This document shows positions 27,823-50,079 of a DNA stretch of 51,935 bases, in pieces. Each line of letters starts with the position of its first letter. Within the stretch, counting starts at the first letter, position 1. A program made the translations under genes and the position numbers. Under the pieces are notes generated by a model. The model was given only the letters and a program-made list of their open reading frames with translations. It did no database searches and had not been told where the DNA came from. The DNA is from Ferrimicrobium sp. (GTDB taxonomy: Bacteria > Actinomycetota > Acidimicrobiia > Acidimicrobiales > Acidimicrobiaceae), in NCBI RefSeq assembly GCF_027364955.1, contig NZ_DAHXOI010000016.1:1-51935 (forward strand). Direction: 5' to 3'.

Positions 27823-27880
27823 CAAACAACCAGTTCAAAAGCGGTTTTACCTAAGTGAGCTGAGAGCCGATTTGCACTCG

Positions 27881-27897
27881 TGTCACGCAAATGTCAC
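27881..27897 (+). repeat. TGTCAC direct repeat at the integrase start
   Basis: TGTCAC at 27881-27886 and 27892-27897 are 11 bp apart, one helical turn, between the tRNA and the integrase. One copy of the motif is conserved beside the integrase stump at 12.5 kb. They are candidate arm-type or autoregulatory sites. Confidence 0.35.
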
Positions 27898-34700: not shown

Positions 34701-35224
34701 GCCAGCATCATGAGATGGAGGTGAGCATGGGGGTCCCCTGCCGAAGAAGCCTGATGAAGGAAGCGCAAGCCCGTGAGCCCCATGGGACGCTCGGAGCGAA
34801 CCCCACCTTTGCCTCGCCGAATGCGAGCCTGCTCCTCAAGAAGCGTGAAGGCCTTGGCGATCGCAAGATCCATCGACTCAGTCAATGCCTGACGCACGCG
34901 TTCGTCGGGATGAGCGAGCAACATCGAAACGGTCTTATCGACATCAAAGACCATCGAGTAGAACGACTTGTCAACGCTGGGTGAAAGCACAGGTTGGTTC
35001 TCCGGTCCAACGCCGTGGATGAAAAGACGACGCGCGTCGATCAAGTTACACTCGGCGCTCAGTCCCATCCTGGTGGCACCGGCACCTAACCAGGTCCCAG
35101 GAATCGAGGCTCGATCAAGGCCCATGCCGAGCGCAACTCCGCCAGCCAAGGCGAGCTCGTTCGCCTCAACCGCATCGACCCGAGAGATCCAGTCAAGGAC
35201 CGCACGAGCCTGGCTTCGACTCAT
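31301..35224 (-). CDS. MobF/TraA-type conjugative relaxase-helicase
   Basis: The protein is 1307 aa from MSRSQARAV; AGAGGAG five bases upstream fixes this start. The TrwC-like relaxase domain has FYSMVFDVDKTVSMLLA and the metal-binding triad HAHLH (H166, H168, H170). The RecD/TraI-type SF1 helicase follows, with Walker A GVAGSGKT near residue 490, Walker B IIIVDEAG, and STIDSVQGQTRDRVVVLVDE near 780. After that comes a long Pro/Ser/Glu-rich disordered tail ending PGGFGFGF. It would nick and unwind DNA for transfer. Two oddities stand out: there is no tyrosine before Y89, so the usual N-terminal catalytic Tyr pair is missing, and the last 450 bp overlap another gene whose frame carries the codon bias. 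Confidence 0.88.
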   Translation of the reverse strand: MSRSQARAVLDWISRVDAVEANELALAGGVALGMGLDRASIPGTWLGAGATRMGLSAECNLIDARRLFIHGVGPENQPVLSPSVDKSFYSMVFDVDKTVSMLLAHPDERVRQALTESMDLAIAKAFTLLEEQARIRRGKGGVRSERPMGLTGLRFLHQASSAGDPHAHLHLMMLATAQGADGKWITLDGRQLFAQGIRMATQEFQNQLRIELARRLDFDALEPAFTKVGSTYMLSFRALAPASSALSSASRSMVQAWKEISGRGVIQGLSSRQHQIAWARHRKGKKELAERLEHELDEALAEGGERANKLRALWRTKMGSEADVLRRLRVRDTLLAPSEATLKVSSAVLQRELARWYTFNLADLANQLRLGDPTMSGEEGLRAAARKVLDDPYLVASEDLKEVYRSWLSMSERDEPVDTATLIRIYGIAKHDRITTTDAIARENAMRNRATEATKIQRVALKPALPQTETFEQAKVIGMMAKGCALSVISGVAGSGKTFVLRPVTEAAKRANLNVTVVARNANLARDLGDELGAHQYSLAGLKRALENQRFDLDTPQIIIVDEAGLIDHRDWKMLLTLARDYPVQIVAVGDRRQAQPIDQRATFAVITSALEAMGAVGKLETTFRNKAWVAEATALRKGDREGVMEKAKVEGRIIGAASEEILQWGAKIYQEHRAQGEDLVVLARDNETAADLASAIQESLGIEGTHEISKEQRCGIGDQVRTRLNVRALGITNGDRFRVAGFTREGIRLERHPGDVPIVVSYDYARDWVELAYASTIDSVQGQTRDRVVVLVDEGLGNTQLYSGATRGKQAPIYLVKTEGTDPEEVLAQALTHDDLVPTLQEMLAPRDLVQDRQAAPRDIRPEPPAMNPQVLRRDQQQDRSTAQSKPQPDRPRPSVEQHQPTFARAQASGPTLPPKPERSAIAPSGGVPGPNPSPANPEPPRGPSEPTPATTAVQGEGNDRPPIHLKIPESPARVLEGRVPVPDTDAQLATPSSSPRPAQSTSSPTGTHSGSLGVNQDCSGLPTPTHTSPPEPSRAAGGNRSEPRPVNTPSDDAPTQQAFEPSPPQWLSVDPAGDRTSHSPDSERRSLEEILPDYEKSTIDEHPIMEPHESSSVSTANHLTPKPPKIRSALDSWINLDDFSALNCTQAAVEERIHGLSITQLHSQSSAEISPSPRASGKGEADHDTRGSLSQLASGDREARRVHTDPSVTGVTKGSASDEATRTRETTDFWRVEQDQKRDIAVDDSSGIGLASDGDALEGVVLENDPTGSYPGDHVHDIDGWVPEESREEDVAQEVPKPGGFGFGF

Positions 35225-35293
35225 CGCTGCTCCTCTTCCGGCCATCGGGGTCCTTTCCGCACCCATGGGGTGCATATGTCCATTCACCACAAT

Positions 35294-35428
35294 AGCAGAC
35301 GAAAACCACCACACAGACAGACAACCGCACAAAGACAGAGAGAACCAACAGAGGAAAGGGGAAACAAAGGACAAGGAAAGGGACAAAGGGAGACAAGGAG
35401 AAAAGAAAGGAACAAAGGACAAGGAACA
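35294..35428. other. 135-nt T-free, purine-rich tract
   Basis: The plus strand contains no T at all for 135 consecutive bases (35294-35428). It is dominated by GGACAAGG/GAAAGG-like repeats in its right two thirds. The minus strand is correspondingly A-free and pyrimidine-rich. It lies in the divergent interval between the relaxase (minus) and the truncated helicase (plus), where a transfer origin would be expected. It could form triplex DNA, give an unstructured 5' leader to the relaxase mRNA, or be part of oriT. There is no evidence here to choose between these. Confidence 0.75.
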
Positions 35429-35496: not shown

Positions 35497-36057
35497 ATGG
35501 CTCGTCTCGAAGATCTCAAACCCGGTGCCCAAGTTGAGGGAGTCATCCGTCAGCAGATCGCAACGGTGGTCGATGCCACCTGGCACGGGAGTGACTGTGT
35601 CGAGTTGGTCTATAAGCGCAGCGAAGGATCGGTTGAGAATCGGTTGCTATATCGGAGCGACGAAGGAGCACTCGTCATTGTTTCTGGCGGTCGAGCCTTT
35701 GAGTTCAGCGGTGATGGAGCTCGGTATCGGTTGGTTGCTGAAGCTCAACGCATTCATCTCGCCCATCTCTTTGATCCGTTTCTCGCGGTCCATGCCTCCA
35801 TTATCGAGCCCTTGCCCCACCAGATCACCGCCGTCTATGAGGAGATGATTCCGCGCCAACCGTTGCGCTTTCTCTTGGCCGATGATCCAGGGGCTGGCAA
35901 GACCATTATGTCGGGTCTGCTCATCAAGGAGTTGATGGCCAGAGGCGAGGTCGAACGCTGTCTTGTTGTCGCTCCGGGATCACTCGCTCTGCGGTCGCAG
36001 CGACTTGATAGCAAGGATTCATACCATGTTGACAGCTCTGGTGACTGCACGGGATGA
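35497..36057 (+). pseudogene. SNF2/DEAD-type helicase, N-terminal fragment
   Basis: The first 165 residues match the start of a large SNF2-family helicase found in defence loci: ARLEDLKPGAQVEGVI, HLFDPFLAVHASIIEPLPHQITAVYE and the Walker A segment FLLADDPGAGKTIMSGLLIKEL, then LVVAPGSLA. After about 35985 the frame turns into unrelated sequence and stops, so some 800 residues, including DExH and motif VI, are missing. The family is normally about 950-1100 aa. The break near 35985 marks a rearrangement between the relaxase module and the R-M operon. The start ATG has no clear ribosome-binding site. Confidence 0.8.
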
Positions 36058-36695
36058 CCAAAGCTACATCGCTTACGGGCTGGGTTCCGGTTCACGCAGC
36101 TCAATAATATTGCACCGGCCACGACCTCGTTTGGCAAGTTGAAGTAGAGGTTCGCAGTCTTAACTTCATCTGGGTGGCTTCAGCTCCACCAACTCGTGCT
36201 CCGACACAATGACATTAGACGGTGAAGCCAGACAAGGCCAGGGTCGGCGCAGACTAGGGGGAGCTCTGAATTGCACTCAAAGGGTTTCATATACCTAAAC
36301 CCTGCAAGGGTATATGGTCAGGAGCAGCCGCGATCAACTCACCAAGACCACTAGTGCGAGTTGGTGAAATCATTGAATCAATGGGAGGGTTACCACAGGC
36401 TGAAGGTCGAGTTGCAATAGCGAGCGGCAGGACGAGATCGGAACGGCAGGCAAAGGATGACCTCGTACGGAGCTATTGTAGGGAGTGTGAATGAGCGGTA
36501 TACCTCTGCTGACGCAGTCGCGCATGAACTCGATCTATGTGGGAAGGGTCCCTACCTGGGTCGCGCGACACGACGCACTGTACGTGGTTTTGACAGAATC
36601 TGGGGGGTTCATGGCTACTCAAGTCGGCCAGTGGTGATCACAACGAACGCCTTTCAAACCGAAAAGTCCTTCATCCGCGTAAAGCTGAGCCAGTA
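36058..36695 (+). other. Interval before the R-M operon, with possible small ORFs
   Basis: No established gene is recognised. Three short plus frames deserve mention: 36354-36494 (GTG start, 46 aa, including VGEIIESMGGLPQAEGRVAI), 36491-36637 (ATG overlapping the former by four bases, 48 aa), and 36457-36696, whose stop TAA overlaps the ATG of the helicase gene (TAATG). They may be remnants or a tiny leader operon. None has a good ribosome-binding site. The promoter of the R-M operon should lie here. Confidence 0.35.
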
Positions 36696-39600
36696 ATGGA
36701 ACTTATCGACAACCTCAACAAGCGGCTGGGAGACGACCTCAAGGTTACACTAACTCGCGGTTCCAAGCTCCGTATTGCCGCATCGACCTTTTCCATCTTT
36801 GCTTTCGAGGCGCTCCGCAAGGAACTCGAGGACATCAAGGAGCTAGAGTTCATCTTCACCGCACCAACGTTCGTTGCCGGTCAGGCGACTGATCGGGGCA
36901 AGAAGGAGCGACGAGAGTTCTACATTCCTCAGACAAAGCGGGAGTCCAGCCTTTACGGTTCGGAGTTCGAAATCCGGCTCCGCAATAGGTTAACCCAGCG
37001 CGCAATTGCCAGGGAATGCGCTGACTGGATCAAACGAAAGGTTACATTTAAGTCCAATAGCACTGGTGCACCGATGCAACAGTTTGCCATCGTTGATGGT
37101 AGTGTGGCGTACGCACCCCTCGCAGGCTTCACATCAGCCGACCTTGGTTACCAGAGAGGTGATGCCCTCTCCAACTTTGTGCAGAAGATCGATGAGGTTC
37201 CACAGGTGTCAGCCTACCTCCAGATGTTCGACAAGATCTGGTCTAGCTCCCAGCAGATCGAGGACGTCACACGGACCGTCTACGAGCACATCGCGAGCGT
37301 TTACGCCGAAAACAGCCCTGAATGGATCTACTTTCTGATCCTGTACAGCCTGTTCTCGGAGTTCCTCGAAGATGTCAGCGATGATGTGCTCCCCGACGAC
37401 CTCACGGGATGGCGCGACTCGGAGATTTGGAAGAACCTCTACAACTTCCAGCGCGACGCCGCAGTGGGAATCATCAACAAACTGGAAACCTACAACGGCT
37501 GTATCCTAGCCGACAGTGTTGGCCTTGGAAAGACGTTCACCGCGTTAGCGGTCATCAAGTACTACGAGAGCCGCAACAAGTCGGTTCTGGTGCTTACCCC
37601 GAAAAAGCTCGAGGAGAACTGGACAACTTACAACAGCCCGTACGTCACTAACCCGTTCTCGGCCGACCGTTTCAGCTACCACGTCCTCGCCCACACGGAC
37701 CTATCCCGTGACCGTGGATATTCCGGTCAGCTCGACCTCAGCAAGGTGAGCTGGGGCAATTTCAACTTGGTGGTCATTGACGAGTCTCACAACTTCCGCA
37801 ACGCCGACTACGCCGAAGAGAAGGAGAGCCGATACCAGCGGCTCATGCGTAAGGTTATCCAGAGCGGCGTGAGGACCAAAGTCCTCATGCTGTCAGCTAC
37901 GCCTGTCAATAACAGGTTCCTCGACCTGAAGAACCAGCTCGCGCTCGCCTACGAGGGCGACTCAACGAACCTATCGGCCAAGCTCGACATCCAAAAGTCG
38001 GTAGAACAGGTCTTCCGTGAGGCGCAGGTCGCCTTTAGGAAATGGTCCGAGCTGCCTATCGAGGAGCGCACCACTGACGCGATCTTGCGGACTCTCGATT
38101 TCGATTTCTTCGAGCTGCTTGACGCGGTCACTATCGCCCGTTCCCGCAAGCACATTCAATCGTTCTATGACACTACCGACATTGGGGCATTCCCGAGCCG
38201 GCTCCCGCCCGAATCGATCCGTGAACCGCTCACCGATCTTCCGCAGGTTCCGAAGTTCAATGAGATCTTCGATCAGCTCCAGGAGCTCACCCTCGCCGTC
38301 TACACACCGCTGTCCTACGTCTTCCCCAGCAAGATGCAGAAGTACGTAGACATGTACGCCATCCAAGCTGGTACGGCACGTGGTAACCTTGGAATGTCCG
38401 GCCGCGAGCAGGGCCTCAAGACAATCATGACCATAAATTTGCTCAAACGCCTTGAGAGCTCCGTCGAAGCCTTCCGGATGACGTTGCGCAAGGTCGATGC
38501 CGCGATCAACCTCGCCTTGGGGGCTCTTGATCAACAGAACCTTAGGACCGCAGATATCGGGGCGGTCTTCGGCGACATCGAGGCCGATGACGATGACTTC
38601 GATGTCCCCGTAGCGCCGTCGGTCGGCAAGAAATACCAGATCGACCTCGACGATATGGACACAACATCGTGGCGTAACCACCTGTTTCACGACCACGAGA
38701 TTATCGGTGAGCTCATGGAGAAGATGGACCTCATCACGCCGGAGCACGACCTGAAGCTACAGCGGCTCAAGAAGGTCGTCGTCTACAAGACCGAGAACCC
38801 GCTCAACGCCGGGAACAAGAAAGTACTGCTGTTCTCGGCGTTCGCCGACACCGCTCGCTACCTTTACTCGAACTTGGAACAGACCGTCTGCGCCAATAAC
38901 TTGCTAGAAATAGGCCTAGTTACGGGCTCTACCCACCCGAAGACAACTCTCGGGGATGGTTTTAACTTCCAGAAGCTTCTGACGTTCTTCTCCCCTGGGT
39001 CGAAGAACAAGGCAGTTGTCTTCCCAGAAGAGTCGGGTGAGATCGACATCTTGATTGGCACAGACTGCATCTCCGAAGGGCAAAACCTTCAGGACTGTGA
39101 CTACGTCATCAACTACGACATTCACTGGAACCCGGTGCGGATCATCCAGCGCTTCGGACGCGTTGACCGCATCGGCTCGAAGAACTCTGTGATCCAGATG
39201 GTCAACTTCTGGCCCGATATTAGCCTCGACGAGTATATCAACCTCAAAGAGCGTGTCGAAAACCGTATGGTCATCGCTGACCTAGCCGCCACCGCCGACG
39301 ACAACCCGCTTACCCAAGAGAGCAACGACACCAAGTTCCGTAAGGAGCAGCTCCGCCGCCTCCAAGATGAAGTCATAGATCTTGAGGACGTCCGCGCTGG
39401 TGTCTCCATTACCGACCTAGGACTCAATGACTTTCGTATGGACCTGCTCAAGTACATGCAAGACTACGGCGACCTCACCTCGGCCCCAAGAGGGCTCCAC
39501 GCGGTGGTTCCTGCGAACCCCGCACGGGGCCTTCGACCAGGCGTCATCTTCGCGTTGCGCAGCCTAGAGAAGCGTACGACGATTAACCGCCACAACCGGT

Positions 39601-39956
39601 TGCACCCAAATTACCTGATCTACCTCGATGATGACGGTAACGTTATCACAGCTCACACCGAAGTAAAGCAGCTCCTGGACCTAATCCGGGCGAGCTGCCA
39701 GGGAGCAGACGAGCCAGTTCACGCCGCTTTCCAGGTCTTCAACGATCTCACGAGCGACGGCGCAGATATGAGTACATACTCTCGCTTGCTCAACGAGGCC
39801 ATCCGTTCAGTGATCGATGTCACTGAGCAGCGCGACATCGACAGCCTATTTTCTGGAACAAGGACAACAGCGTTGCAGCAGGGCTTCCAGGGGCTCGACG
39901 ACTTCGAGTTGATTGCCTTCCTCGCCATCGTTGAGCCAAAGGCAATCGATGGCTGA
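36696..39956 (+). CDS. SNF2-family helicase with N-terminal PLD-like domain (R-M-associated)
   Basis: The protein is 1086 aa. Residues 1-165 look like a phospholipase-D-like fold (LRIAASTFSIFAFEALRKEL, then FAIVDGSVAYAPLAGFTSADL) but lack an HKD catalytic motif. The SF2 helicase core follows: motif I DSVGLGKTFTA at about 272, motif II VVIDESHNF at about 360, motif III LMLSATPVNN at about 398, and in the second lobe GTDCISEGQNLQDCDYVINYD and IQRFGRVDRIGS near 790-830. A long helical insertion sits between the lobes. It is the first gene of a tight four-gene run with a DUF4391 protein, Mod and Res, so it is predicted to be an ATP-driven DNA translocase serving anti-phage restriction. Its last codons overlap the next start by eight bases. 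Confidence 0.9.
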   Translation: MELIDNLNKRLGDDLKVTLTRGSKLRIAASTFSIFAFEALRKELEDIKELEFIFTAPTFVAGQATDRGKKERREFYIPQTKRESSLYGSEFEIRLRNRLTQRAIARECADWIKRKVTFKSNSTGAPMQQFAIVDGSVAYAPLAGFTSADLGYQRGDALSNFVQKIDEVPQVSAYLQMFDKIWSSSQQIEDVTRTVYEHIASVYAENSPEWIYFLILYSLFSEFLEDVSDDVLPDDLTGWRDSEIWKNLYNFQRDAAVGIINKLETYNGCILADSVGLGKTFTALAVIKYYESRNKSVLVLTPKKLEENWTTYNSPYVTNPFSADRFSYHVLAHTDLSRDRGYSGQLDLSKVSWGNFNLVVIDESHNFRNADYAEEKESRYQRLMRKVIQSGVRTKVLMLSATPVNNRFLDLKNQLALAYEGDSTNLSAKLDIQKSVEQVFREAQVAFRKWSELPIEERTTDAILRTLDFDFFELLDAVTIARSRKHIQSFYDTTDIGAFPSRLPPESIREPLTDLPQVPKFNEIFDQLQELTLAVYTPLSYVFPSKMQKYVDMYAIQAGTARGNLGMSGREQGLKTIMTINLLKRLESSVEAFRMTLRKVDAAINLALGALDQQNLRTADIGAVFGDIEADDDDFDVPVAPSVGKKYQIDLDDMDTTSWRNHLFHDHEIIGELMEKMDLITPEHDLKLQRLKKVVVYKTENPLNAGNKKVLLFSAFADTARYLYSNLEQTVCANNLLEIGLVTGSTHPKTTLGDGFNFQKLLTFFSPGSKNKAVVFPEESGEIDILIGTDCISEGQNLQDCDYVINYDIHWNPVRIIQRFGRVDRIGSKNSVIQMVNFWPDISLDEYINLKERVENRMVIADLAATADDNPLTQESNDTKFRKEQLRRLQDEVIDLEDVRAGVSITDLGLNDFRMDLLKYMQDYGDLTSAPRGLHAVVPANPARGLRPGVIFALRSLEKRTTINRHNRLHPNYLIYLDDDGNVITAHTEVKQLLDLIRASCQGADEPVHAAFQVFNDLTSDGADMSTYSRLLNEAIRSVIDVTEQRDIDSLFSGTRTTALQQGFQGLDDFELIAFLAIVEPKAIDG

Positions 39957-40650
39957 GCTGATCCAGTGGCCAGAGGTGGCGAAGGTCGACCGTCTGATCC
40001 CGAAGGAGCGACTGTATGCCGAGACGAGTGCCAGTCTCGCCCTCAAGCAACGGTTCGTCGACGAGGTCCAACGAGTTCGTTGGGCGTACAATCTCAGCGA
40101 GGATTCGCTGCACTTTGCACCCGGCCAGACCGTCACAGAGATTCAGGTATTTCTTATCGACCTGAAGGGCCCCGATCTGGACAACTCCATTCTGGCCTCC
40201 ATCGACAGGGCAATCCCGAGCCAGGTCATCTTCGAGCTGCGGCGCAATAACGGCCCCGCGACTGAGCAGGCGATGACTGCGGCCTACAAACACAGCGGTG
40301 TCAAAACCAAGGGCAGCGACTACTTCCGCACCGCATGGATCGGGTCAGAACAACCACGGGCACCGCTGCCGGTCACATTGGACTTGGATAGCCTGTACAG
40401 CCAAATCCTAGGCCGTCTACTACCCTATCAGATGTGGACTGGAGAAGAACTGTGGGATACCATCAACAGGGTGGGCCGCATCCGCAGACTCGCACGCGAG
40501 ATCCCGATGCTTGAGAAGCGTGTGCGGGCTGAGGCACAGTTCAACTACAAGGTGGAATTGCGCATCCAACTGCGGATCAAGCAGGCCGCGTTGGCTGGCC
40601 TAACTAGAAACGAGGACGGCATGACAGAGGACGCCGCGTGGAGAAGCTAA
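39949..40650 (+). CDS. DUF4391-domain protein of the R-M operon
   Basis: The 233-aa protein (MAELIQWPEVAKVDRLIPKERLY start) belongs to DUF4391 by its layout: RLIPKERLYAET, LKQRFVDEVQRVRWAYNLS, a VTEIQVFLIDLKGPDLDNSILASIDRAIP core, then ELRRNNG. The C-terminal 60 residues are a basic helical region. No catalytic motif is visible and the function is unknown. The ATG at 39949 overlaps the helicase stop by eight bases; the open frame to 39913 has no separate support. It is encoded between the SNF2 helicase and the methyltransferase in a pattern repeatedly seen next to type III R-M genes, so it may bridge the helicase and the Mod-Res complex (inference). Confidence 0.85.
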   Translation: MAELIQWPEVAKVDRLIPKERLYAETSASLALKQRFVDEVQRVRWAYNLSEDSLHFAPGQTVTEIQVFLIDLKGPDLDNSILASIDRAIPSQVIFELRRNNGPATEQAMTAAYKHSGVKTKGSDYFRTAWIGSEQPRAPLPVTLDLDSLYSQILGRLLPYQMWTGEELWDTINRVGRIRRLAREIPMLEKRVRAEAQFNYKVELRIQLRIKQAALAGLTRNEDGMTEDAAWRS

Positions 40651-40652
40651 AG

Positions 40653-42521
40653 ATGCACTCCCCTGACTTGACCAAGCGCAACATCGACCAGATTGCCGAG
40701 CTATTCCCTCAGGTCATCACCGAAACCCTCGACTCGGAAGGCAACCTCAGGCGTGCCGTCGACTTCGACCTGCTCCGCCAGGAACTCTCGGACCACATCG
40801 TCGAAGGACCACACGAGCGTTACCAGCTCGACTGGCCCGGCAAGCGCACTTCTGCTTTCGCTGCCAACGCACCCATCGCCAAGACACTGCGACCGGTACG
40901 CGAGGAATCGGTCGACTTCGACACGACGAAGAATATCTTCATAGAGGGCGACAACCTTGATGCACTCAAGCTACTTCAGGAGTCGTATCTCGGCAAGATC
41001 AAGCTTATTTACATCGACCCGCCCTACAACACGGGCAACGACTTCATCTACCGTGATGACTTCTCGGAGTCGAACGAAGAGTATTTAAAGCGCTCGGGTC
41101 AAAAATCTGACGCTGGTGAGCGCCTAGTTGCAAACACAGGGACCAGTGGGAGGTTCCACTCCGACTGGCTGTCGATGATGCACCCGCGGCTGAAGTTAGC
41201 GCGCAATCTACTAACGCCCGGTGGCTTAATCTTCATCTCGATAGACGAAGGTGAAGCTTCAGCCCTCAAGCTCATGTGCGACGAGATATTCGGCCACGAC
41301 AACTTCGTTGAACAGTTCGCATGGAAGAACAAGTATGGTGGAGGTGCGCTCTCGCGCGGCATTGCTAACGTTCACGAGTATGTGCTTGTGTATTCACGAA
41401 CTCCCATCGAGAGCCTCGCAGCGCCTCTCGATGAAGATCAGCGTGCCAGCTACAAGCTACAAGATGAGAAGTTCGCCCGGCGCGGAGGATTCATCACACA
41501 GCCACTGGCAACACGCAGCAAAGATCCCCGGCCGAATCTCGTATATCCGATTGAGTGGGAAAAGCGTGAGGTCTGGCCAGACAAACAGTGGGTTTGGTCT
41601 AGGGAGCGGGTCGAACAGGCGCGCGAGAATAACGAGATCGTGTTCTCGGAGGCGAATGGCAAGACAAGTGTTCGTGTAAAGCAGTATCTTCGCGACGAGT
41701 CGGGTGTCGAGCGTCTCGGCAAGCCCGTATCAGTGCTGATTGGCCCCTACAATCAGGCCGGGACGCGAGACCTGGAGACACTGTTTGACACGAAGGTATT
41801 TGATTTCCCAAAGCCCGTCGCTCTCATCAAGTACTTCGCGTCGTTCGTCGTGAATGGCGACACGGAACAAGGCTTCATTACTCTGGATTTCTTTGCCGGA
41901 TCAGGATCGGCAGCGCACGCTATCATGCAACTCAATGCCGAGGACGGCGGTCAACGACAGTTCATCGCAGTCCAAGCTCCCGAAGTCACACCACCCAGTT
42001 CCGAGGCTCGTCGCGCCGGATTCGAAACGATCGCAGAGCTATCCAGAGAGCGTATAAGGCGCGCTGGCGCTCAGATTCGAGCCGACTCGGGACGACGGCT
42101 CGGCGATCTTCTCGATACCGGTTTCCGGTCGTTTCGCGTTGACATGACGAACATGGCTGAAGTGCATACATCACCGGATTTGACCGCCCAGTCCGAACTA
42201 CCTTATCATGTCGACAGCATCAAGCCTGGCCGTAGTGCTGACGACCTTGTATTCCAGGTGATGCTTGACTGGGGGCTTGAGTTGTCGCTGCCAATTGAGC
42301 ATGAGAGAGTCGCTAGTCACGAGCTGCTGACGGTCGGTGAATATGCGTTGATCGCATGCTTCGTGGACGAAGTGTCCGATGACATCGTACGAGCGATCGC
42401 CAAGCGTAATCCGCTGCGCGTTGTATTTAGGGACTCCGGCTTCGCCAACGATGCGGCCCGCATCAACACGGAGCAGATCTTACGGGAATTGTCTCCTGAG
42501 ACGGAAGTAAGGGTGATCTGA
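40653..42521 (+). CDS. Type III restriction-modification DNA methyltransferase
   Basis: The protein is about 622 aa, a normal Mod length. The beta-class amino-methyltransferase order is clear: IEGDNLDALKLL, catalytic motif IV LIYIDPPYNTGNDF near residue 120, a large target-recognition region between about 200 and 400, and the AdoMet motif DFFAGSGSAAHAIM near 410. It should methylate adenine in an asymmetric site and also specify the target for Res. GGAGAAG precedes ATG 40653; an upstream in-frame GTG at 40638 overlapping the DUF4391 stop is an alternative. The Res gene starts four bases after its stop. The target sequence cannot be predicted. Confidence 0.93.
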   Translation: MHSPDLTKRNIDQIAELFPQVITETLDSEGNLRRAVDFDLLRQELSDHIVEGPHERYQLDWPGKRTSAFAANAPIAKTLRPVREESVDFDTTKNIFIEGDNLDALKLLQESYLGKIKLIYIDPPYNTGNDFIYRDDFSESNEEYLKRSGQKSDAGERLVANTGTSGRFHSDWLSMMHPRLKLARNLLTPGGLIFISIDEGEASALKLMCDEIFGHDNFVEQFAWKNKYGGGALSRGIANVHEYVLVYSRTPIESLAAPLDEDQRASYKLQDEKFARRGGFITQPLATRSKDPRPNLVYPIEWEKREVWPDKQWVWSRERVEQARENNEIVFSEANGKTSVRVKQYLRDESGVERLGKPVSVLIGPYNQAGTRDLETLFDTKVFDFPKPVALIKYFASFVVNGDTEQGFITLDFFAGSGSAAHAIMQLNAEDGGQRQFIAVQAPEVTPPSSEARRAGFETIAELSRERIRRAGAQIRADSGRRLGDLLDTGFRSFRVDMTNMAEVHTSPDLTAQSELPYHVDSIKPGRSADDLVFQVMLDWGLELSLPIEHERVASHELLTVGEYALIACFVDEVSDDIVRAIAKRNPLRVVFRDSGFANDAARINTEQILRELSPETEVRVI

Positions 42522-42525
42522 GTCG

Positions 42526-45500
42526 ATGAAGCTCCAGTTCAAGGTTCAACAGTACCAGACGGAAGCCGTCGATGCGGTGGTCGATGTGTTCGCTGGTCAG
42601 CCATTCGCAGACGGGGTCAGATACCGCATCGACCGAGGTCGGGTTGCTGCATCAACCCTGCCAGAGGACGCCGGCCTTCGCAACAGTGAAATTGCATTGA
42701 CGCCGACGTCACTTCTAGAGAATGTGCAGGAGGTCCAACGTAGGCGCGGCTTGCCGTTATCGCGGGGTCTCGACAGTTCGCCGGCCGCTCCGCTCAACCT
42801 TGACATCGAAATGGAAACCGGCACAGGGAAGACCTACGTATACACGAAGACGATCATGGAGCTGCACAAGCGGTACGGCTGGTCAAAATACATCGTGGTC
42901 GTGCCGAGCATCGCGATCCGCGAGGGCGTGAAGAAGTCCTTCGACATCACCGCAGACCACTTCCAGCAACTCTACGGAACTAAGCCCCGCACATTCGTCT
43001 ACAACTCCTCGAGCCTGCCCGAAGTGGAACGGTTCTCATCCGGCTCCCTTGTGCAGGTGATGATCATCAACATTCAAGCCTTTAACGCCACCGGGAAGGA
43101 TGCCCGCAGAATCTACGAGGTGCTCGATGACTTCCAGTCGCGCAGACCCATCGACGTCATCGCGGCAAACCACCCCATCCTAATAATCGATGAGCCACAA
43201 AAGATCGAGGGCGATGACAAAAGGCCGTCGAAGTCGCTCCAAGCGCTGAGCCAGTTCAACGCACTGTTCGCACTTCGCTATTCGGCTACCCACAAGATCG
43301 AGCGTACGAAGGTGTATCGACTCGACGCGCTCGACGCCTACAATCAGAAGCTTGTAAAAAAAATCGCCGTGCGCGGTATCACCGTTAAGGGGCTCTCCGG
43401 CAGCAGCGCCTATCTATATGTCGACGGGCTCGAAGTCGGCAAAGGCACCGAGTTCCCGAAGGCGCGGATCGAGCTGGAGTTTCAGACTAGGGGCGGGCCT
43501 ATTACGCGCAAGACGATTCGAGTCAAGAAGGGCTCCCGACTGCACGACCTGTCCGGCGAGATCGAGGCATACAAGAACCTCGTCGTGGTGGACGTCGACG
43601 CTAATCGGGACATCATTGAACTCAGCAATGGAGATATCATCACCGCAGGTCAGGTGACACAGGACGTCACTGACGACGTGAAGCGTCGCATCCAGATTCG
43701 AGAGGTGATCCGAGCTCACCTCGAAAAGGAACGCGAACTGTACGCCCAGGGCATCAAGGTGCTCTCTTTGTTCTTCATAGACGAGGTCGCAAAGTACCGC
43801 GACTACAGCCGAGAGGACACCCTCGGTGAGTACGCTCGTGTCTTCGAGGAGGAGTACGAATCGCTCCTCACTGACTTCCTCTATCATCTTAACCTAGACG
43901 ACTCGAGGCGCTACCGGGAGTACTTGGAGTCGATCCCTGTAACCAAGACTCATCAGGGATACTTCTCCATCGACAAGAAGACTGGCCGCAGCATCGATGG
44001 CGCTATCAAGAAGACCGGGGAGACCGCAGGCCAGTCCGATGACGTGGATGCCTACGACCTAATCCTGAAAGACAAAGAGAGGCTGCTCTCGTTCGAAGAG
44101 CCAGTGCGTTTCATCTGGTCGCACTCCGCCCTTCGCGAGGGCTGGGATAATCCTAACGTCTTTGTGATGGGGATGCTCAAGAAGAGCGACAACACGACCA
44201 CTCGACGACAAGAGATCGGCCGCGGTCTGAGACTGTCTGTCGACCAGCACGGCGAACGGATGGACAACCCGGTGACGGTTCATGACATCAACGAACTGAC
44301 CGTGGTGACCGACGAGTCCTACACCTCCTTTGTAACAGCGTTGCAGAAAGAGATCGTGGAGTCTCTGAGCGCCAGCCCGCGTAAGGCAACGACCGAGTTC
44401 TTCGTCGGAAAAGTCGTCTACGACCAGTCTGGTACACCACACACCATCACGCTCGATGACGCTAAGAAGCTCAAGTTCTGGCTCATGAAAAATGACTTCA
44501 CCGATTACGACGACCATCTCACCGATACATGGATTAATCGCGGAGCCCTATCCGAAATCCCGGAGATGCTACCGGAATTGCAGCCATTCTTCTATCAAGT
44601 GGTAGACCTTGTCGACTCACTGAACGTCGCGCTTCCGTCAGTCACTGACGGCCGCAAGCCCAAACGCATTCCGCTCAACGAGACGAACTTCGCCAAGAAA
44701 GAATTCCAGGAGCTGTGGGAGCGAATCAACCACCGCACGGTCTACCAAGTTGAGTTCGACTCTGCGGAACTAATCGCGAAGTGCATCGACACGCTCGACG
44801 AATCACTAAACGTCGCTGTCATGCAGTATGTCGTCCAGAAGGGAGTCCAGCTCACTGCTATTGAGGTCAAAGACCTTGAAGCCGGTGAAGCCTTCGAGGT
44901 CACCACGACCAAGATCGAGGAGTCGTCACTCAGCGCAGGGTCAACGGTCGAGTACGACCTTCTCGGCGAGATTGCCGAGAAGACACAGCTCACCCGTCGA
45001 ACCTGCGCCGCGATCCTGACTGGCATCAACCCGGACACATTCGCCAAGTTTAAGCGGAACCCCGAGCAGTTCATCACCGAGACCTCCCGCCTAGTCAATG
45101 AGCAGAAGGCCACTGTCATCGTCGAACACCTGGCGTATGATCCACTCGACGATCGCTACGACGCCTCAATCTTTACGGAGAACCAAACCGCTCAGGATCT
45201 GACAAAAGCCGGCGGCAAGCTCAAGAAGAGTGTATACGAGTACGTCGTCACGGACTCGAATATCGAACGATCCTTCGTCGAGATGCTTGACGTCAGCGAC
45301 GAGGTAGTCGTGTATTCCAGGCTGCCACGAGGGTTCTTCATCCCCACTCCGGTCGGCGACTACCATCCGGACTGGGCTATCGCCTTCGTGGAGGGAAAGG
45401 TTAAACACGTCTACTTTGTCGCTGAGACCAAGGGCTCGATGTCCACGCTTCAGCTCAAGGGCATCGAGAAAGCCAAGATCGAGTGCGCCCGCAAGTTCTT

Positions 45501-45591
45501 CGCCTCGCTCAGCGAACGAGCCGAACGCGCCGGCGTGAAGTATGATGTCGTCGACAGCTACGATTCGCTGCTCAGCCTCGTGATGGCCTGA
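42526..45591 (+). CDS. Type III restriction endonuclease subunit
   Basis: The 1021-aa protein is the full length for Res. The helicase core has Walker A METGTGKTYVYTK near residue 95, motif II ILIIDEPQKIEG near 220, a FIWSHSALREGWDNPNVFV block near 530 and RRQEIGRGLRL. The C-terminal nuclease has the PD-(D/E)XK set: PDWAIAF followed by VYFVAETKGS near 970. It would form the ATP-dependent cutting complex with Mod. All key residues are intact, so restriction should be functional. It is the last gene of the four-gene operon, which ends at the decayed IS110 element. Confidence 0.94.
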   Translation: MKLQFKVQQYQTEAVDAVVDVFAGQPFADGVRYRIDRGRVAASTLPEDAGLRNSEIALTPTSLLENVQEVQRRRGLPLSRGLDSSPAAPLNLDIEMETGTGKTYVYTKTIMELHKRYGWSKYIVVVPSIAIREGVKKSFDITADHFQQLYGTKPRTFVYNSSSLPEVERFSSGSLVQVMIINIQAFNATGKDARRIYEVLDDFQSRRPIDVIAANHPILIIDEPQKIEGDDKRPSKSLQALSQFNALFALRYSATHKIERTKVYRLDALDAYNQKLVKKIAVRGITVKGLSGSSAYLYVDGLEVGKGTEFPKARIELEFQTRGGPITRKTIRVKKGSRLHDLSGEIEAYKNLVVVDVDANRDIIELSNGDIITAGQVTQDVTDDVKRRIQIREVIRAHLEKERELYAQGIKVLSLFFIDEVAKYRDYSREDTLGEYARVFEEEYESLLTDFLYHLNLDDSRRYREYLESIPVTKTHQGYFSIDKKTGRSIDGAIKKTGETAGQSDDVDAYDLILKDKERLLSFEEPVRFIWSHSALREGWDNPNVFVMGMLKKSDNTTTRRQEIGRGLRLSVDQHGERMDNPVTVHDINELTVVTDESYTSFVTALQKEIVESLSASPRKATTEFFVGKVVYDQSGTPHTITLDDAKKLKFWLMKNDFTDYDDHLTDTWINRGALSEIPEMLPELQPFFYQVVDLVDSLNVALPSVTDGRKPKRIPLNETNFAKKEFQELWERINHRTVYQVEFDSAELIAKCIDTLDESLNVAVMQYVVQKGVQLTAIEVKDLEAGEAFEVTTTKIEESSLSAGSTVEYDLLGEIAEKTQLTRRTCAAILTGINPDTFAKFKRNPEQFITETSRLVNEQKATVIVEHLAYDPLDDRYDASIFTENQTAQDLTKAGGKLKKSVYEYVVTDSNIERSFVEMLDVSDEVVVYSRLPRGFFIPTPVGDYHPDWAIAFVEGKVKHVYFVAETKGSMSTLQLKGIEKAKIECARKFFASLSERAERAGVKYDVVDSYDSLLSLVMA

Positions 45592-45826: not shown

Positions 45827-47068
45827 CTAGGCGACCCTCCCGGTTATGGTGACCTCGAACCCGAGAGCTTCGATCCGTTTGCTAAGTCGCTTTACCTGAG
45901 CTTCGGGATCATTGTGGGTCTCAAAGTAATCAGCCCCTAGATCTTGGTAGAGTTCTCCATTGGTAAGGAGATGCCAGACGACGTTTAACATGGAGTTGGC
46001 TACCGCAACGGCTGCCTTGTTGGGCCCTCGCCGTCTGGCGATTCGCGCATACTGGGCAGATGAGTAGGTTCCTTTTGTACGAGCCGCCGCCCGAGCAGCC
46101 TCTATCATCGCACGCTTTAACGACGTAGATCCATGTCTGGTACCTGCTGGCTTTCGCTTACCAGCTGACTCATAACTAGCAGGGGCTAGTCCAGCCCACG
46201 CACACAGATGTTGGGCGGTTGGAAACCTCGACATGTCACCCCCGGTCTCAGCGATGATCACCTGAGCTGTGATGGTAGAGATACCCGGAATGGATGATAC
46301 CAGAGCGACGGCGGACTCAAAAGGGTGCGAGACGCTCACAGATCTCCTCGGTGAGTGCCCCGATCGCAGCATCCAGATAATCGATGTGGTCAATGATCTG
46401 TCTGGCGACGAAGGCATGGTGGGCTCCGAAGTGTCCATAGAGTGCCTCCTCGAGTTGAGGGATCTTGGCTCGCATCCTGGACTTGGCCATCTGGGCCAAG
46501 ACTATGGGATCCCTTTCACCCGCGATGAGTGCCTCAATAATCTGTCTCGATGAGGCACTCCACACCCCAGAGGCTACCGAGGTGAGCTTGATGCCAGCGT
46601 CTTTCCAGAACCTTCTCTAGGCGTTGGATCTCTCTTGCCCTAGCGTCCACTTGGGTCTTGCGATATCGGGTCAACTCACGAAGTTCACGAATCTCAGGTG
46701 GAGGTACAAAGCTTGGCCGTACCATGCCATGGGCGGCAACGTCTGCGAGCCATTCGGCATCTGCGAGGTCCGTCTTTCTGCCAGGTACATTCTTAACGTG
46801 CTGTGCGTTATGAGAGCCAGAGCTTGTCAAAGAGTCCCTCCAGTGCGTAGTACACCGGCTTCCAGTACACACCTGTTGCCTCCATCACCACGGTTGACGC
46901 TCCGGCAGCAATGAGGAACTGGGCTAAGTCACCTAGTCCTTTACGTGTGGTGGCAAAGGTCTCCTTGGAAAGGGTGACCATGCCATCTGGTTCTCGAACT
47001 CGCGTGCATGCGACGACGGTGTCACGGTGCACGTCAAGACCACCTACCTTCTCTGCTATCTCCTTCAT
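45827..47068 (-). mobile_element. IS110-family transposase, decayed by three frameshifts
   Basis: Reading on minus from ATG 47068, four successive frames together encode one IS110 transposase. The N-terminal RuvC-like DEDD part has GGLDVHRDTVVAC, MEATGVYWKPV and, in the next frame, KTDLADAEWLADVA. A coiled-coil middle follows, then the Tnp IS116/IS110/IS902 domain with SSIPGISTITAQVIIAE, LCAWAGLAPASYESAGKRKPAGTRHGS and VWHLLTNGELYQD. Shifts occur near 46825, near 46609 (an extra A in AAA) and near 46321 (an extra T in TTT); two are single-base homopolymer expansions. The transposase is therefore inactive unless these are sequencing errors. IS110 elements use a bridge RNA encoded in their non-coding end. 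Element termini were not identified. Confidence 0.85.
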
Positions 47069-47523: not shown

Positions 47524-50079
47524 CTATGAAGACGAGGAATACCGATCAAAGACCATCTCTATCTCGCGCCGAACCAGCGCTGGCAGTTCGTTGAGCACAT
47601 CGCGATGTTCGTTCACCCATGATGTAACTTCTTCTCGGCTGAGACTGTCGGGAACAATGAATTCGGACAGTGCAACTGCGCTGGTTCGTGAAAGCCCGAG
47701 CACCATGAGTGATACTTCCGTCACCCGCGAGACACCCAATTCCAGCATCATGCTAATGTCAGGAAGATCCGAAGTCACTTCGCGACCTTGTTGTCGAAGA
47801 TGTAGGAAAAGCACGTCAGTGTAGCAGGCGAGATACTTCGGTCCTTGGAATCGGGCAACCTGTTCAACGTCGTGCATCACATCACGAATCTCTTTTGGCA
47901 GCTTGTAAGGGCGATTATTGCGCTGAAGGTAGCCAATGCGACCATCGATCAATTTCGCAAGCGATGTTCCGCGCATCCAGTTGGTGATCAATATAGCAAG
48001 CGCTATCTGGCGTGAATGCTCTCCGAAAGCCGCTCCGAGTTCCTGATTCGCAAGATTAAGAGCCAGCTGATAGTTATCGACAGCGTCACTACTCTCAGGT
48101 GGCGCAAGAACAAGATCATCGGGGTTGTCATAAGTTCGGAACCGCTCTAAGAGCCGTTGCATTGCAGCGGGGCTGATTCCCGAGTGTCGTTCCAATAGTA
48201 CGACGTCAATGTCAGTCGGCTCCACCGCGGTGCGGATCGCCAATTCGAGTCGCTGAGCGTCTGCGTCAGTAAGCTTAGGGAGATTCGACAGACCAGCACC
48301 AGATATAACTCGCGCAGCGAGGTAGCTGTAGAGAGCTTCCAGCATAGGGTTAGCCCTAGCCACATCGAGCGGCGCCCCACCATCAATATAAGCGACCACG
48401 GCCCCGACGTCAGCTAACGCCTCTTGAGTCGCACGTGTCATTGGTTGTCGCTTGCGGCTGGTAGGGAGCTCAGTCCAGCACCTAGGGCGGTTAGCGTCTA
48501 CGCAAACGATGTTACCCTGGAACTCTTGACCCCAACGCCCTGCACGGCCGGCTAGGTTCCAGAAGTCCGCCGCACTCATTGGAGTGCCGTTGCCTTTCTT
48601 AGGGTTACGTGCGAACAGGTTACGGCATGGCAGATTAACGCCCTCAAGTAGAGTTGACGTGCACACCAAGTAGTTAAGCGTACCGCTGCGGAACAGACGC
48701 TCAATCTCGGTTCGGACAGGCAACGGCATGTTGCCATAGTGAAATGCGACGCCACGCAGCACTACAGTTGCCAACGCATACTGCGGGTGGATAGTCTTCT
48801 GAATGAGTTCTCGGAGGTCGACAATACCTTGTTCATAGGAAATGTCTGCGTCCGATCCCAACGCCTCATAGATCTGCAGGGCCGTCCTCTCGGCATCGGC
48901 GGCTCCATTGACGTAAACTACATTCCCCCCTCCAGATTTGCCCAGGGCTACGGCTACGAGTGGTAATCGTTTGCTATCTGGCTGAGGGCGAGCAGGAAGG
49001 TCGAACTCGCCGATGTCGCTTGGCTGGCTATCGAGCACTAGCTGAAGCTTCCAGAGCGTCGGACGACGCGGAACCTGATCGACCCAGATCAAATTCTGAT
49101 TAACAGTAATCCAGTCACTACTTACCGTAGCGATATTCGCATTGTATCCGGCACCCTCCAATAGCAGCTCTGGATTGGAAGACAGCGGGCTCGCAAAAAT
49201 GACCTGGCTTGCAGGGTTCCGACGGACACCTTCCTCAATGGTTTGTTGGAGCAAGACACCCCGTGCTCCATCACCAAACTTCTGCGCTTCATCCACGAAT
49301 AGCAGGTCGGCACCTTCTGCGGGCAATCTCTGTTGCAGTAGATGGAGCCGCTCCTGAGTGAGCACGAGGATCTTACGTCTTCGCGCTTCAATTTCAGCAT
49401 CCCATGGGACTGAGTAGATCCCCACATCCATTGCCACAAACTGCTCGCTAAGATCACCGCTCACTTCTTCTATAAGCGCACGAGTTGGTACAACATAGAT
49501 CCCCGTAAACCGCTCCCGATCGGCCATGCATTCCTCGAACCATCGACGCACAATATACGATTTGCCGGCTGACGTCGGTGCAGAGACACTAACCCAACGA
49601 GCCTCCTGTGCGGCATCCCAGAATCGTCGCTGAAACGGGTTGGCCTTCACCACGCCGCTACCGGTGACAGGGATTGTCAGCTCTAGGCGTCGACGTACCA
49701 CGTCTAGCTGCAACGTGGTAGGTGCCCGTGTCCAGGAATCCGATGGAATTATTCCGCGATCGACGGCGAGACTGAGCGACGGCAGATTTCCCATCCGTTC
49801 AAGCAGAATCACCGCTGCATTCCGATGGTGACTCAGTGTGTCATCGGCGAGCAAACAGCCTTGCGCTATTCGCAAGGCGAGATCCTGAGCAGCTTCGTCG
49901 TCCTCGGCTGTTAACGCACTCGCGAGCGACAGCGCTCGCGGCCAATCAATTGGGAACTGCTCGCCGGTAGAACGCACAACGCCAAAATCGTGTAGAACAC
50001 CGTGTCGTGCTATCTCCATGCGTATTGTCGCGGTGCTCTCGTTGCTAAGGATAGCTGCAGCGATTGGGGATACCGTCAT
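47524..50079 (-). CDS. Hachiman helicase HamB
   Basis: The 851-aa protein is a Ski2-like superfamily 2 helicase. Motif I is SAPTSAGKSYIVRR near residue 170, motif II LLFVDEAQKFGDG near 265, and in the second lobe LVCTSTLLEGVNLPCRNLF and motif VI FWNLAGRAGRWG near 490-520. About 150 N-terminal helical residues precede the core, and an alpha-helical region follows it. In Hachiman, HamB senses damaged or phage DNA using ATP and releases the HamA nuclease. It follows hamA with a four-base start-stop overlap, the standard Hachiman order. All core helicase motifs are intact. Confidence 0.92.
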   Translation of the reverse strand: MTVSPIAAAILSNESTATIRMEIARHGVLHDFGVVRSTGEQFPIDWPRALSLASALTAEDDEAAQDLALRIAQGCLLADDTLSHHRNAAVILLERMGNLPSLSLAVDRGIIPSDSWTRAPTTLQLDVVRRRLELTIPVTGSGVVKANPFQRRFWDAAQEARWVSVSAPTSAGKSYIVRRWFEECMADRERFTGIYVVPTRALIEEVSGDLSEQFVAMDVGIYSVPWDAEIEARRRKILVLTQERLHLLQQRLPAEGADLLFVDEAQKFGDGARGVLLQQTIEEGVRRNPASQVIFASPLSSNPELLLEGAGYNANIATVSSDWITVNQNLIWVDQVPRRPTLWKLQLVLDSQPSDIGEFDLPARPQPDSKRLPLVAVALGKSGGGNVVYVNGAADAERTALQIYEALGSDADISYEQGIVDLRELIQKTIHPQYALATVVLRGVAFHYGNMPLPVRTEIERLFRSGTLNYLVCTSTLLEGVNLPCRNLFARNPKKGNGTPMSAADFWNLAGRAGRWGQEFQGNIVCVDANRPRCWTELPTSRKRQPMTRATQEALADVGAVVAYIDGGAPLDVARANPMLEALYSYLAARVISGAGLSNLPKLTDADAQRLELAIRTAVEPTDIDVVLLERHSGISPAAMQRLLERFRTYDNPDDLVLAPPESSDAVDNYQLALNLANQELGAAFGEHSRQIALAILITNWMRGTSLAKLIDGRIGYLQRNNRPYKLPKEIRDVMHDVEQVARFQGPKYLACYTDVLFLHLRQQGREVTSDLPDISMMLELGVSRVTEVSLMVLGLSRTSAVALSEFIVPDSLSREEVTSWVNEHRDVLNELPALVRREIEMVFDRYSSSS

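What the first reader, a model, noticed from the sequence alone, without database searches (positions are those of the whole stretch)
36696..45591. Four-gene restriction operon: PLD-like/SNF2 helicase, DUF4391, type III Mod and Res
Seen: four same-strand genes with overlaps or gaps of at most about four bases, encoding an SNF2 helicase with an N-terminal PLD-like domain lacking HKD, a DUF4391 protein of unknown function, a beta-class Mod with DPPYNTG, and a Res with METGTGKT and PD...ETKG. Known: ordinary type III systems need only Mod and Res. Inference: the two extra genes are functional parts of an enlarged restriction system, perhaps a translocase that loads or remodels DNA and an adaptor. 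I do not know of a mechanism for DUF4391 here.
Basis: partly seen in the sequence, partly recalled or inferred. Interest (0 to 1): 0.72.

Follow-up and report, generated by a model that had tools for sequence, protein, structure and literature searches.

The report
Four-part bacterial DNA-restriction system, extra motor
A common type of bacterial DNA-cutting defence here carries two extra partner genes, a DNA motor whose own cutting site has died and a small linker-like protein, and the same four genes recur together in many bacteria and an archaeon, so they most likely work as one enlarged machine whose workings are still untested.

Summary
Four same-strand genes at 36696-45591 encode an SNF2 helicase, a DUF4391 protein, a beta-class type III Mod and a Res. 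It is a conserved operon: in 80 DUF4391-seeded genome loci SNF2 lies upstream in 80, Mod in 76 of 76 with room, Res in 62 of 63. SNF2-seeded viral contigs give DUF4391 55 of 63, Mod 49 of 55, Res 44 of 52. Most sampled type III Res loci lack the pair: 3 of 13 readable ones have it, one being the seed. The helicase N-terminus is a PLD relative by profile (E 4.8e-33). None of 159 type III-linked copies keeps the catalytic H and K; all 7 sister copies do. The sisters pair with an Eco57I-type methyltransferase whose N-terminus is weakly DUF4391-like. Best reading: a motor-nuclease plus methyltransferase system lent its motor and DUF4391 docking domain to a type III enzyme, and the motor's nuclease died once Res did the cutting. 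Contacts and function are inferred. New variant of a known kind; nine searches of the held library found no description.

The parts
36696..39956 (+). SNF2 (HepA/RapA-like SF2) motor with N-terminal degenerate PLD domain, 1086 aa; PADLOC C3a139 'HKD+Snf2'
   Evidence: 441.6 bits, residues 2-1076; best PDB relative RapA, E 1.8e-11
36696..37433 (+). N-terminal PLD-like domain (residues 1-246) with catalytic H and K lost (Met127 and Gln129 in the aligned places)
   Evidence: (hhalign 99.9%, E 4.8e-33 to HKD-intact sister); AlphaFold model too poor to use (pLDDT 48.9)
37437..39218 (+). SNF2 helicase core, about residues 248-841, with ADSVGLGKT, VIDESHN and QRFGRVDRIG motifs intact
39949..40650 (+). 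DUF4391 protein, 233 aa: alpha/beta domain followed by a long helical hairpin
   Evidence: PF14335, 142.5 bits; AlphaFold pLDDT 86.3, pTM 0.80
40531..40563 (+). DUF4391 hairpin-tip stretch, residues 195-205 (family consensus EKQFNRKVEIN), the densest cluster of invariant residues
   Evidence: E195, Q197, F198, N199, K201, V202 invariant in 81 sequences, 6 of 15 invariant columns; the loci were found by a pattern in this stretch, so its conservation is partly by selection; helices 168-194 and 198-219
40638..42521 (+). type III Mod, beta-class DNA methyltransferase, 627 aa, GTG start
   Evidence: PDLC03634, 709 bits; EcoP15I Mod 4zcf_A E 5.7e-102
41343..41822 (+). approximate target-recognition region of Mod (residues 236-395), fastest-varying part
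   Evidence: mean distance 0.77 against 0.42 for the rest of Mod; boundaries chosen by eye
42526..45591 (+). type III Res, SF2 motor with METGTGKT, 1021 aa
   Evidence: PDLC03647, 1043 bits; EcoP15I Res 4zcf_C E 2e-100, the only PDB match at E 0.001
45223..45555 (+). Res C-terminal endonuclease domain (RE_endonuc)
36457..36696 (+). small ORF that ends on the SNF2 start; only part of it faintly resembles the HTH gene that precedes SNF2 in some relatives; uncertain, perhaps decayed
   Evidence: HTH-like ORF in 17 of 73 genome loci with room (the profile of four sequences included the window ORF)

Best explanation
A type III restriction-modification system with a built-in second motor. Mod and Res form the usual site-specific methylating and cutting enzyme. 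The SNF2 protein descends from an HKD nuclease-translocase whose nuclease site is dead; it keeps its ATPase motifs and probably uses the inert PLD domain to dimerise or hold DNA. DUF4391 is a docking subunit that ties this motor to the Mod-Res complex, as a similar domain appears to do in cis on the sister methyltransferase. The motor then drives or clears Res along unmodified DNA (pushing aside bound proteins, or making movement directional), so that Res meets a partner and cuts. Shown here: intact genes, conserved order, co-variation, absence of HKD on the type III-linked branch and its presence in the sister group, one clade of type III-linked motors in the tree made. Supported but remote: DUF4391-like domain in sister methyltransferases. 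Inferred: physical docking, translocation, effect on cutting.
For: Neighbourhood: SNF2 80/80, Mod 76/76, Res 62/63 in the best 80 of 287 DUF4391 loci; SNF2-seeded DUF4391 55/63, Mod 49/55, Res 44/52; 15 of 17 clostridial-class DUF4391 loci; in the window's class 3 of 296 genomes have DUF4391, each with all four genes. Co-variation in 66 operons: partial r SNF2-DUF4391 0.72, SNF2-Res 0.34, Mod-Res 0.33, DUF4391-Res 0.21, DUF4391-Mod 0.09, SNF2-Mod 0.00; the recognition region against SNF2, DUF4391 and Res r 0.05-0.08. SNF2-Res exceeds SNF2-Mod although Res is the farthest gene, so linkage alone is not the cause. HKD: 0 of 159 type III-linked, 7 of 7 sister; in a 32-row tree type III-linked motors form one clade 99/98 and the sisters another 98/98. 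DUF4391-like methyltransferase N-termini: PF14335 E 8.6e-5 and 9.9e-5 in two of four checked; in a 274-genome scan the two weakest hits, E 1.5e-5 and 6.9e-5, both lie in the frame next to an HKD-SNF2; hhalign 77%, E 2e-5.
Against: No experiment and no complex model. The DUF4391-to-methyltransferase match covers only about residues 36-124, is under Pfam's cut-off (23 against 29.9 bits), was only 24% probable with narrower alignments and at best E 0.0039 with the narrower profile; two of four methyltransferases gave no PF14335 hit; the best of 210 controls reached E 0.0022, close to the weaker true hits, and one of seven true ones (L248, E 0.017) is worse than that control. On the Res tree the pair needs 5 changes, and some Res close to these have no SNF2/DUF4391 (L141, L148), so Res can exist without the pair. 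One locus has SNF2 directly followed by Res without DUF4391 or Mod between (L238). Two DUF4391 proteins stand alone (L169, L175). Distance correlations also reflect common descent.
Confidence: 0.57

Rival explanations
1. The pair is a brake or safety device: the RapA-like SNF2, guided by DUF4391, strips Res or Mod from the cell's own DNA (or resolves stuck complexes) and so limits self-damage, rather than helping restriction.
For: Best solved relative of the motor is RapA, which recycles a DNA-bound enzyme (recalled). Co-variation with Res fits equally well. 43 of 68 loci with the three genes in view carry extra DNA in the DUF4391-Mod or Mod-Res slot, often defence or toxin-like genes, where control would be useful.
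Against: The sister motor has an intact HKD, which points to an attacking ancestor; most type III Res loci sampled manage without the pair.
Confidence: 0.2
2. SNF2 plus DUF4391 is a separate two-gene defence system that merely shares the operon.
For: These operons do host other defence-type genes in the DUF4391-Mod and Mod-Res slots (SIR2-HerA, RhuM, YhcG-like, PtuA-like, Fic).
Against: Unlike those guests, the pair is present in nearly every locus and was seldom found away from Mod/Res; it co-varies with Res; its nuclease site is dead, so alone it would lack an obvious effector.
Confidence: 0.08
3. DUF4391 is itself catalytic (for example a nuclease-like alpha/beta domain) and the SNF2-DUF4391 pair cuts DNA independently of Res.
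For: AlphaFold gives an alpha/beta core before the hairpin; E64 and D86 are invariant and K73 nearly so in 81 sequences, so a catalytic set is not excluded; the related methyltransferase N-terminus is where type IIG enzymes carry their nuclease (recalled).
Against: The invariant residues are densest in the hairpin tip, not in the core; no PDB fold match was found, though the hairpin filled the list; Res already has its nuclease domain.
Confidence: 0.06
4. Ordinary type III system beside chance neighbours.
For: Mod and Res alone match ordinary type III families.
Against: The neighbourhood counts, and the same order in plasmids of Bacillota, Pseudomonadota, Actinomycetota and an archaeon.
Confidence: 0.02

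Closest known systems
Type III restriction-modification (EcoP15I, EcoP1I)
   Same: Mod beta-class methyltransferase and Res SF2/endonuclease enzyme; profile matches to EcoP15I chains 4zcf_A (E 5.7e-102) and 4zcf_C (E 2e-100)
   Different: two further co-occurring genes, SNF2 and DUF4391; EcoP15I moves by ATP-triggered one-dimensional diffusion (PMC4490356, abstract and passages); EcoP1I named from recall
PADLOC C3a139 'HKD+Snf2' (PDLC01075)
   Same: full-length match of the SNF2 protein, 441.6 bits
   Different: the label implies an HKD nuclease; this branch has lost it; the output does not tie the model to DUF4391 or type III
Sister HKD-SNF2 plus Eco57I-type methyltransferase loci (L230, L232, L236, L239, L248, L329, L330)
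   Same: motor 38-41% identical to the window's in the five found; partner has a DUF4391-like N-terminus (remote)
   Different: HKD intact, no Mod/Res seen; methyltransferase, recognition domain and DUF4391-like domain in one chain
DISARM DrmD / BREX BrxH-type / Dpd DpdE SNF2 helicases
   Same: same HepA-like helicase core
   Different: 139 bits against DrmD's curated 610; none of the other three operon proteins is a DISARM, BREX or Dpd partner
SauUSI (type IV, PLD nuclease plus SF2 motor)
   Same: nuclease domain fused to an SF2 translocase; its nuclease domains hold a dimer together (PMC7913695, abstract), which suggests a use for a dead PLD domain; that the nuclease is of PLD type is recalled
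   Different: active nuclease, single protein, recognises methylated targets
CxC-ABC-ATPase / PbeABCD systems
   Same: HKD+SF2 helicase with a methylase and a fast-evolving small partner (PMC10853773, passages)
   Different: built on an ABC ATPase and a DndE-like protein, neither among the four operon genes

Membership tests
Type III restriction-modification | beta-class Mod, motif IV (DPPY) before recognition region before motif I (FxGxG) | tested here: met
   EcoP15I Mod profile match E 5.7e-102
Type III restriction-modification | Res with SF2 ATPase and C-terminal endonuclease domain | tested here: met
   ResIII 46.8 bits and RE_endonuc 106.9 bits; EcoP15I Res E 2e-100
Type III restriction-modification | Mod2Res1-2 complex, ATP-dependent cutting that needs two inversely oriented sites | not testable with these tools
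   needs biochemistry; property of EcoP15I seen in passages of PMC4490356
Type III restriction-modification | system made of mod and res alone | tested here: not met
   two extra co-occurring genes; so filed as a variant of type III, not as a plain member
PLD (HKD) nucleases | homologous PLD domain | tested here: met
   hhalign 99.9%, E 4.8e-33 to HKD-intact sister and 97.4%, E 1.4e-11 to four SNF2s, three of which were scanned and match PLDc_2; single-sequence Pfam misses it in 70 of 70 and the model was too poor to show the fold
PLD (HKD) nucleases | catalytic HxK | tested here: not met
   0 of 159 type III-linked copies; window has Met and Gln there
DISARM | DrmD helicase over its curated score | tested here: not met
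   139 bits against 610 (NF038317)
DISARM | DrmA, DrmB, DrmC partners | tested here: not met
   among the four operon proteins none: best PADLOC models are C3a139, MTase_III and REase_III, and none for DUF4391; the rest of the genome was not searched
DUF4391 (PF14335) | score over the curated cut-off | tested here: met
   142.5 against 29.9 bits

The most novel reading that the evidence does not exclude
A separate restriction-modification subtype: the DUF4391-docked SNF2 motor turns passive type III sliding into directional translocation, so that the enzyme may cut DNA with a single site or clear protein roadblocks. It arose when an HKD-SNF2 plus DUF4391-methyltransferase system, itself perhaps an undescribed two-gene restriction system, handed its motor and docking domain to type III enzymes, after which the motor's nuclease died.
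Probability: 0.3. Interest if true: 0.78.

Novelty: new variant of a known kind. Interest (0 to 1): 0.62.

Why it matters
EcoP15I, the model type III enzyme, restricts by ATP-triggered passive sliding between two sites. A widespread lineage with a near-obligate second motor of a directional kind would change how that class is thought to find and cut DNA, would give DUF4391 a role, and makes a direct test possible: does a dead-nuclease SNF2 motor set the site requirement of a type III enzyme? It also suggests a clean evolutionary switch, a nuclease lost where another nuclease joined, and gives annotators a four-gene rule for loci now labelled only as type III.

Tried and rejected
Chance neighbours: rejected by the counts. 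Independent embedded module: considered, kept as a rival. DISARM, BREX, Dpd or Hma membership of the SNF2: rejected by scores and partners. Solved-structure matches of DUF4391: none by sequence (best E 0.078, a kinetochore subunit), Foldseek none at E 0.001 or less, VIA-align 2 only helical matches of the hairpin, Z up to 7.4; this neither shows a new fold nor excludes a known one, since the hairpin filled the list. Structure of the helicase N-terminus: AlphaFold pLDDT 48.9, unusable, so the PLD claim rests on profiles. The first PLD test, by Pfam, failed and was replaced by profile comparison with relatives. The DUF4391 profile against methyltransferases gave weak scores with the narrow profile (best E 0.0039) and better with the wide one; both are told.

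Literature: nine searches. One paper holds the word DUF4391 (PMC7784981), as a row in a table of enriched functions (passage). PMC9122601, PMC10952713 and PMC5644110 were looked at by passages only; the passages seen describe no such operon. The other papers were seen as listings, except those cited with their calls.

The HKD regular expression alone is misleading (it misses true relatives and finds one chance match), so aligned positions were used.

Counts mended on re-reading: the Mod count, 50 of 55, includes L248, whose 'Mod' is a 20-bit hit 7.8 kb away, so 49 of 55 is given. Of the 20 type III loci fetched, L152 and L157 begin too near a contig start to show the pair, so 10, not 12, readable loci lack it; in the Res tree these two rows were still labelled 'none'. 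The genome-wide DUF4391 scan found no match in the genomes of the 17 loci without the pair.

Rows dropped before counts: one search counts Mod only in 76 loci with 1.5 kb of room and Res only in 63 with 6 kb; one search sets aside 13 of 76 loci for DUF4391, 21 for Mod and 24 for Res that are too near a contig end; one search drops 9 divergent loci of 75; removes duplicates and SNF2s under 800 bits or 900 aa, and leaves 15 of 181 without HK and without type III genes in view (14 at a contig end, plus L249, which has DUF4391 and a Res piece at the other end of its contig); one search uses 21 type III-linked rows (the window, 10 drawn at random, 10 divergent ones chosen by hand); one search uses 22 type III loci drawn at random plus chosen ones.


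Full report
What is there. The window holds four intact same-strand genes with tiny overlaps or gaps: SNF2 36696-39956, DUF4391 39949-40650, Mod 40638-42521, Res 42526-45591. Pfam, PADLOC and PDB profile searches identify a HepA/RapA-type SNF2 motor, a DUF4391 protein, a beta-class type III methyltransferase and a type III Res with its endonuclease domain. The helicase, Mod and Res motifs are intact. The DUF4391 protein has no match in PADLOC, NCBIfam or PHROGs at the thresholds used.

Is it a system? A degenerate-pattern scan of one genome per species found 287 relatives of DUF4391; the best 80 were kept. With profiles made from ten or eleven loci, SNF2 lies upstream on the same strand in 80 of 80 (78 within 400 bp, two with an insert), Mod downstream in 76 of 76 with at least 1.5 kb of room, Res in 62 of 63 with at least 6 kb. 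Nine plasmid regions and one phage-labelled contig opened from 40 DUF4391 hits show the same order, some with guest genes in between; Res is reduced to a piece in one (L009) and an IS1 element splits Mod in another (L006). A scan seeded by SNF2 in viral contigs, so not biased towards DUF4391, gives DUF4391 55 of 63, Mod 49 of 55, Res 44 of 52. Of the eight DUF4391 misses, two have a frame-broken DUF4391 (L180, L193), five are the sister system described below, and in one SNF2 is directly followed by Res (L238). In a sample of 291 genomes of the class of a clostridial locus, 18 have DUF4391; of the 17 other than the seed, 15 sit beside SNF2 and/or Mod and Res and two stand alone (L169, L175). 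In the window's own class 3 of 296 genomes have DUF4391, each with the four genes.

The reverse question. In a 274-genome sample of the class around L031, 31 genomes have the type III endonuclease domain and 8 a DUF4391 match: five with the operon (one the seed), one broken remnant (G501), and two weak ones in the sister system. Of the 20 strong endonuclease loci fetched, 3 have SNF2 and DUF4391 (one is the seed), 10 readable ones do not, and 7 lie too near a contig end to tell. So the pair belongs to some type III lineages, not all. On a Res tree of 46 rows the pair needs 5 changes against a shuffled mean of 12.2, 0 of 500 shuffles as low: clustered, but with gains, losses or transfers. One type III locus without the pair has another SNF2 next to a GmrSD gene (L159).

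Do the parts move together? In 75 complete operons the pairwise distances of SNF2, DUF4391, Res and the Mod backbone correlate at 0.82-0.95, but with the Mod recognition region only at about 0.10-0.14. In the 66 closer operons partial correlations are SNF2-DUF4391 0.72, SNF2-Res 0.34, Mod-Res 0.33, DUF4391-Res 0.21, DUF4391-Mod 0.09, SNF2-Mod 0.00. The recognition region is free to change while the motor side stays matched to Res; the order of coupling does not follow gene order. Shared ancestry contributes to all of these numbers.

The dead nuclease. The helicase N-terminus matches no PLDc model in Pfam (0 of 70) and folds poorly. But its profile matches that of a sister group at 99.9% probability, E 4.8e-33, and of four more distant SNF2 proteins, the three of them scanned being PLDc_2-positive, at 97.4%, E 1.4e-11. 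At the aligned HxK positions 0 of 159 distinct type III-linked motors keep H and K (the commonest pair is M and Q, 64), whereas 7 of 7 sister motors do. In a 32-row tree all 21 type III-linked motors form one clade (99/98) beside the HKD clade (98/98); the tree is rooted at the midpoint for drawing only, the four outgroup rows have long branches, and the branch that parts them from the rest has 84/82.

The sister system. Four HKD motors are followed, directly or after a KilA-N gene (L230), by a large Eco57I/N6 methyltransferase, with a TaqI-type specificity domain in three of the four. In the other three (L239, L329, L330) the next frame is cut by the contig end; its N-terminus aligns with those methyltransferases. 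Two of the four methyltransferases match PF14335 weakly in their N-termini (E 8.6e-5 and 9.9e-5). Independently, the PF14335 scan of 274 genomes had two sub-threshold hits, and both lie in the frame next to an HKD-SNF2. A wider profile finds 6 of 7 sister methyltransferases at E 0.0012 or better and the seventh at 0.017; the best of 210 reversed or shuffled controls reached 0.0022; hhalign gives 77%, E 2e-5 over 89 columns, against 24% with narrower alignments. I read this as remote homology between free DUF4391 and a domain that sits in cis on a methyltransferase beside the same kind of motor, i.e. a docking domain between motor and methyltransferase. It is suggestive, not conclusive.

DUF4391 itself. 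AlphaFold gives a confident model (pLDDT 86.3, pTM 0.80): an alpha/beta domain and a long helical hairpin, whose tip holds 6 of the 15 invariant columns. The loci were found by a pattern in that stretch, so its conservation is partly a matter of selection; it is also strong in the eleven sequences gathered before the scan, where N199 is invariant and E195, Q197, F198, R200, V202 and E203 nearly so. No solved structure is convincingly similar.

Mechanism. EcoP15I slides passively on DNA after ATP hydrolysis and cuts on collision with a second enzyme (PMC4490356, abstract and passages). SauUSI, an ATP-dependent nuclease with a helicase-like motor, is held as a dimer by its nuclease domains and translocates actively (PMC7913695, abstract). 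The simplest joint reading is that the SNF2 protein brings active translocation or roadblock clearing to a type III enzyme, its dead PLD domain serving structure rather than cutting, and DUF4391 linking it to Mod-Res. A brake role is the main rival. Neither has been tested.

A platform for guests. In 43 of 68 loci with DUF4391, Mod and Res in view, more than 450 bp of extra DNA lies between DUF4391 and Mod or between Mod and Res. Representatives of ten guest families match SLFN/AlbA_2, YhcG-type PD-(D/E)XK, PtuA-like ATPase, DUF2130, HerA, SIR2, Bro-N, Fic, RhuM and UvrD-like models. Five loci have two full Mod genes. The window's operon has no guest.

Literature. Nine full-text searches of the held open library found no description of the four-gene system; DUF4391 occurs in one paper, in a table of enriched functions (PMC7784981, passage). 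Most subscription papers and preprints are not in that library, and REBASE could not be consulted.

Odds.

Noticed in passing
window 35497-36057 (+): N-terminal 164 residues of an HmaA-type SNF2 helicase (PADLOC PDLC00659, 237 bits, profile positions 1-164 of 1176) cut short: a relic of another defence system just upstream.
   Followed up: partly
window 47524-51053 (-): DEAD/DEAH helicase and HamA (PF08878, 155 bits): by its gene content a Hachiman defence pair, so the operon lies in a defence island.
   Followed up: partly
window 27747-29063 and 31301-35422: tRNA-Arg with a tyrosine integrase right beside it, then a TrwC relaxase/helicase gene: possibly an integrated mobile element carrying the island.
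   Followed up: no
window 45827-46872 (-): Transposase-like frames resembling IS110 (by eye, from recall) in two pieces downstream of Res.
   Followed up: no
L230, L232, L236, L248, L329, L330: Possibly undescribed two-gene restriction system: HKD-SNF2 motor plus DUF4391-like/Eco57I methyltransferase, followed by an SMC/AAA-type ATPase in three (L230, L236, L248).
   Followed up: partly
L159 1606-8678: A type III Mod preceded by a GmrSD-type gene and a different SNF2 (Res follows, L139): another SNF2 motor at a type III locus.
   Followed up: partly
L169 9157-9951 and L175 9171-10013: DUF4391 proteins without SNF2, Mod or Res nearby; by eye they lack the conserved hairpin-tip motif.
   Followed up: partly
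L005 and E. coli collection: The operon of L005 is found in 10 of 5426 complete E. coli genomes, 9 with at least 80% of it; 10 of 11 places are on plasmids, of 111-179 kb in the rows listed.
   Followed up: partly
L148/L160: Res close to the window's type with several Mod copies or pieces in tandem and no SNF2 or DUF4391: perhaps a loss of the pair.
   Followed up: partly
L012-L091, DUF4391-Mod and Mod-Res slots; also L004, L010: Guest genes of many defence-type families sit inside this operon, among them SIR2 with HerA.
   Followed up: partly
L238 5858-12111: SNF2 of this family directly followed by Res, without DUF4391 or Mod between.
   Followed up: no
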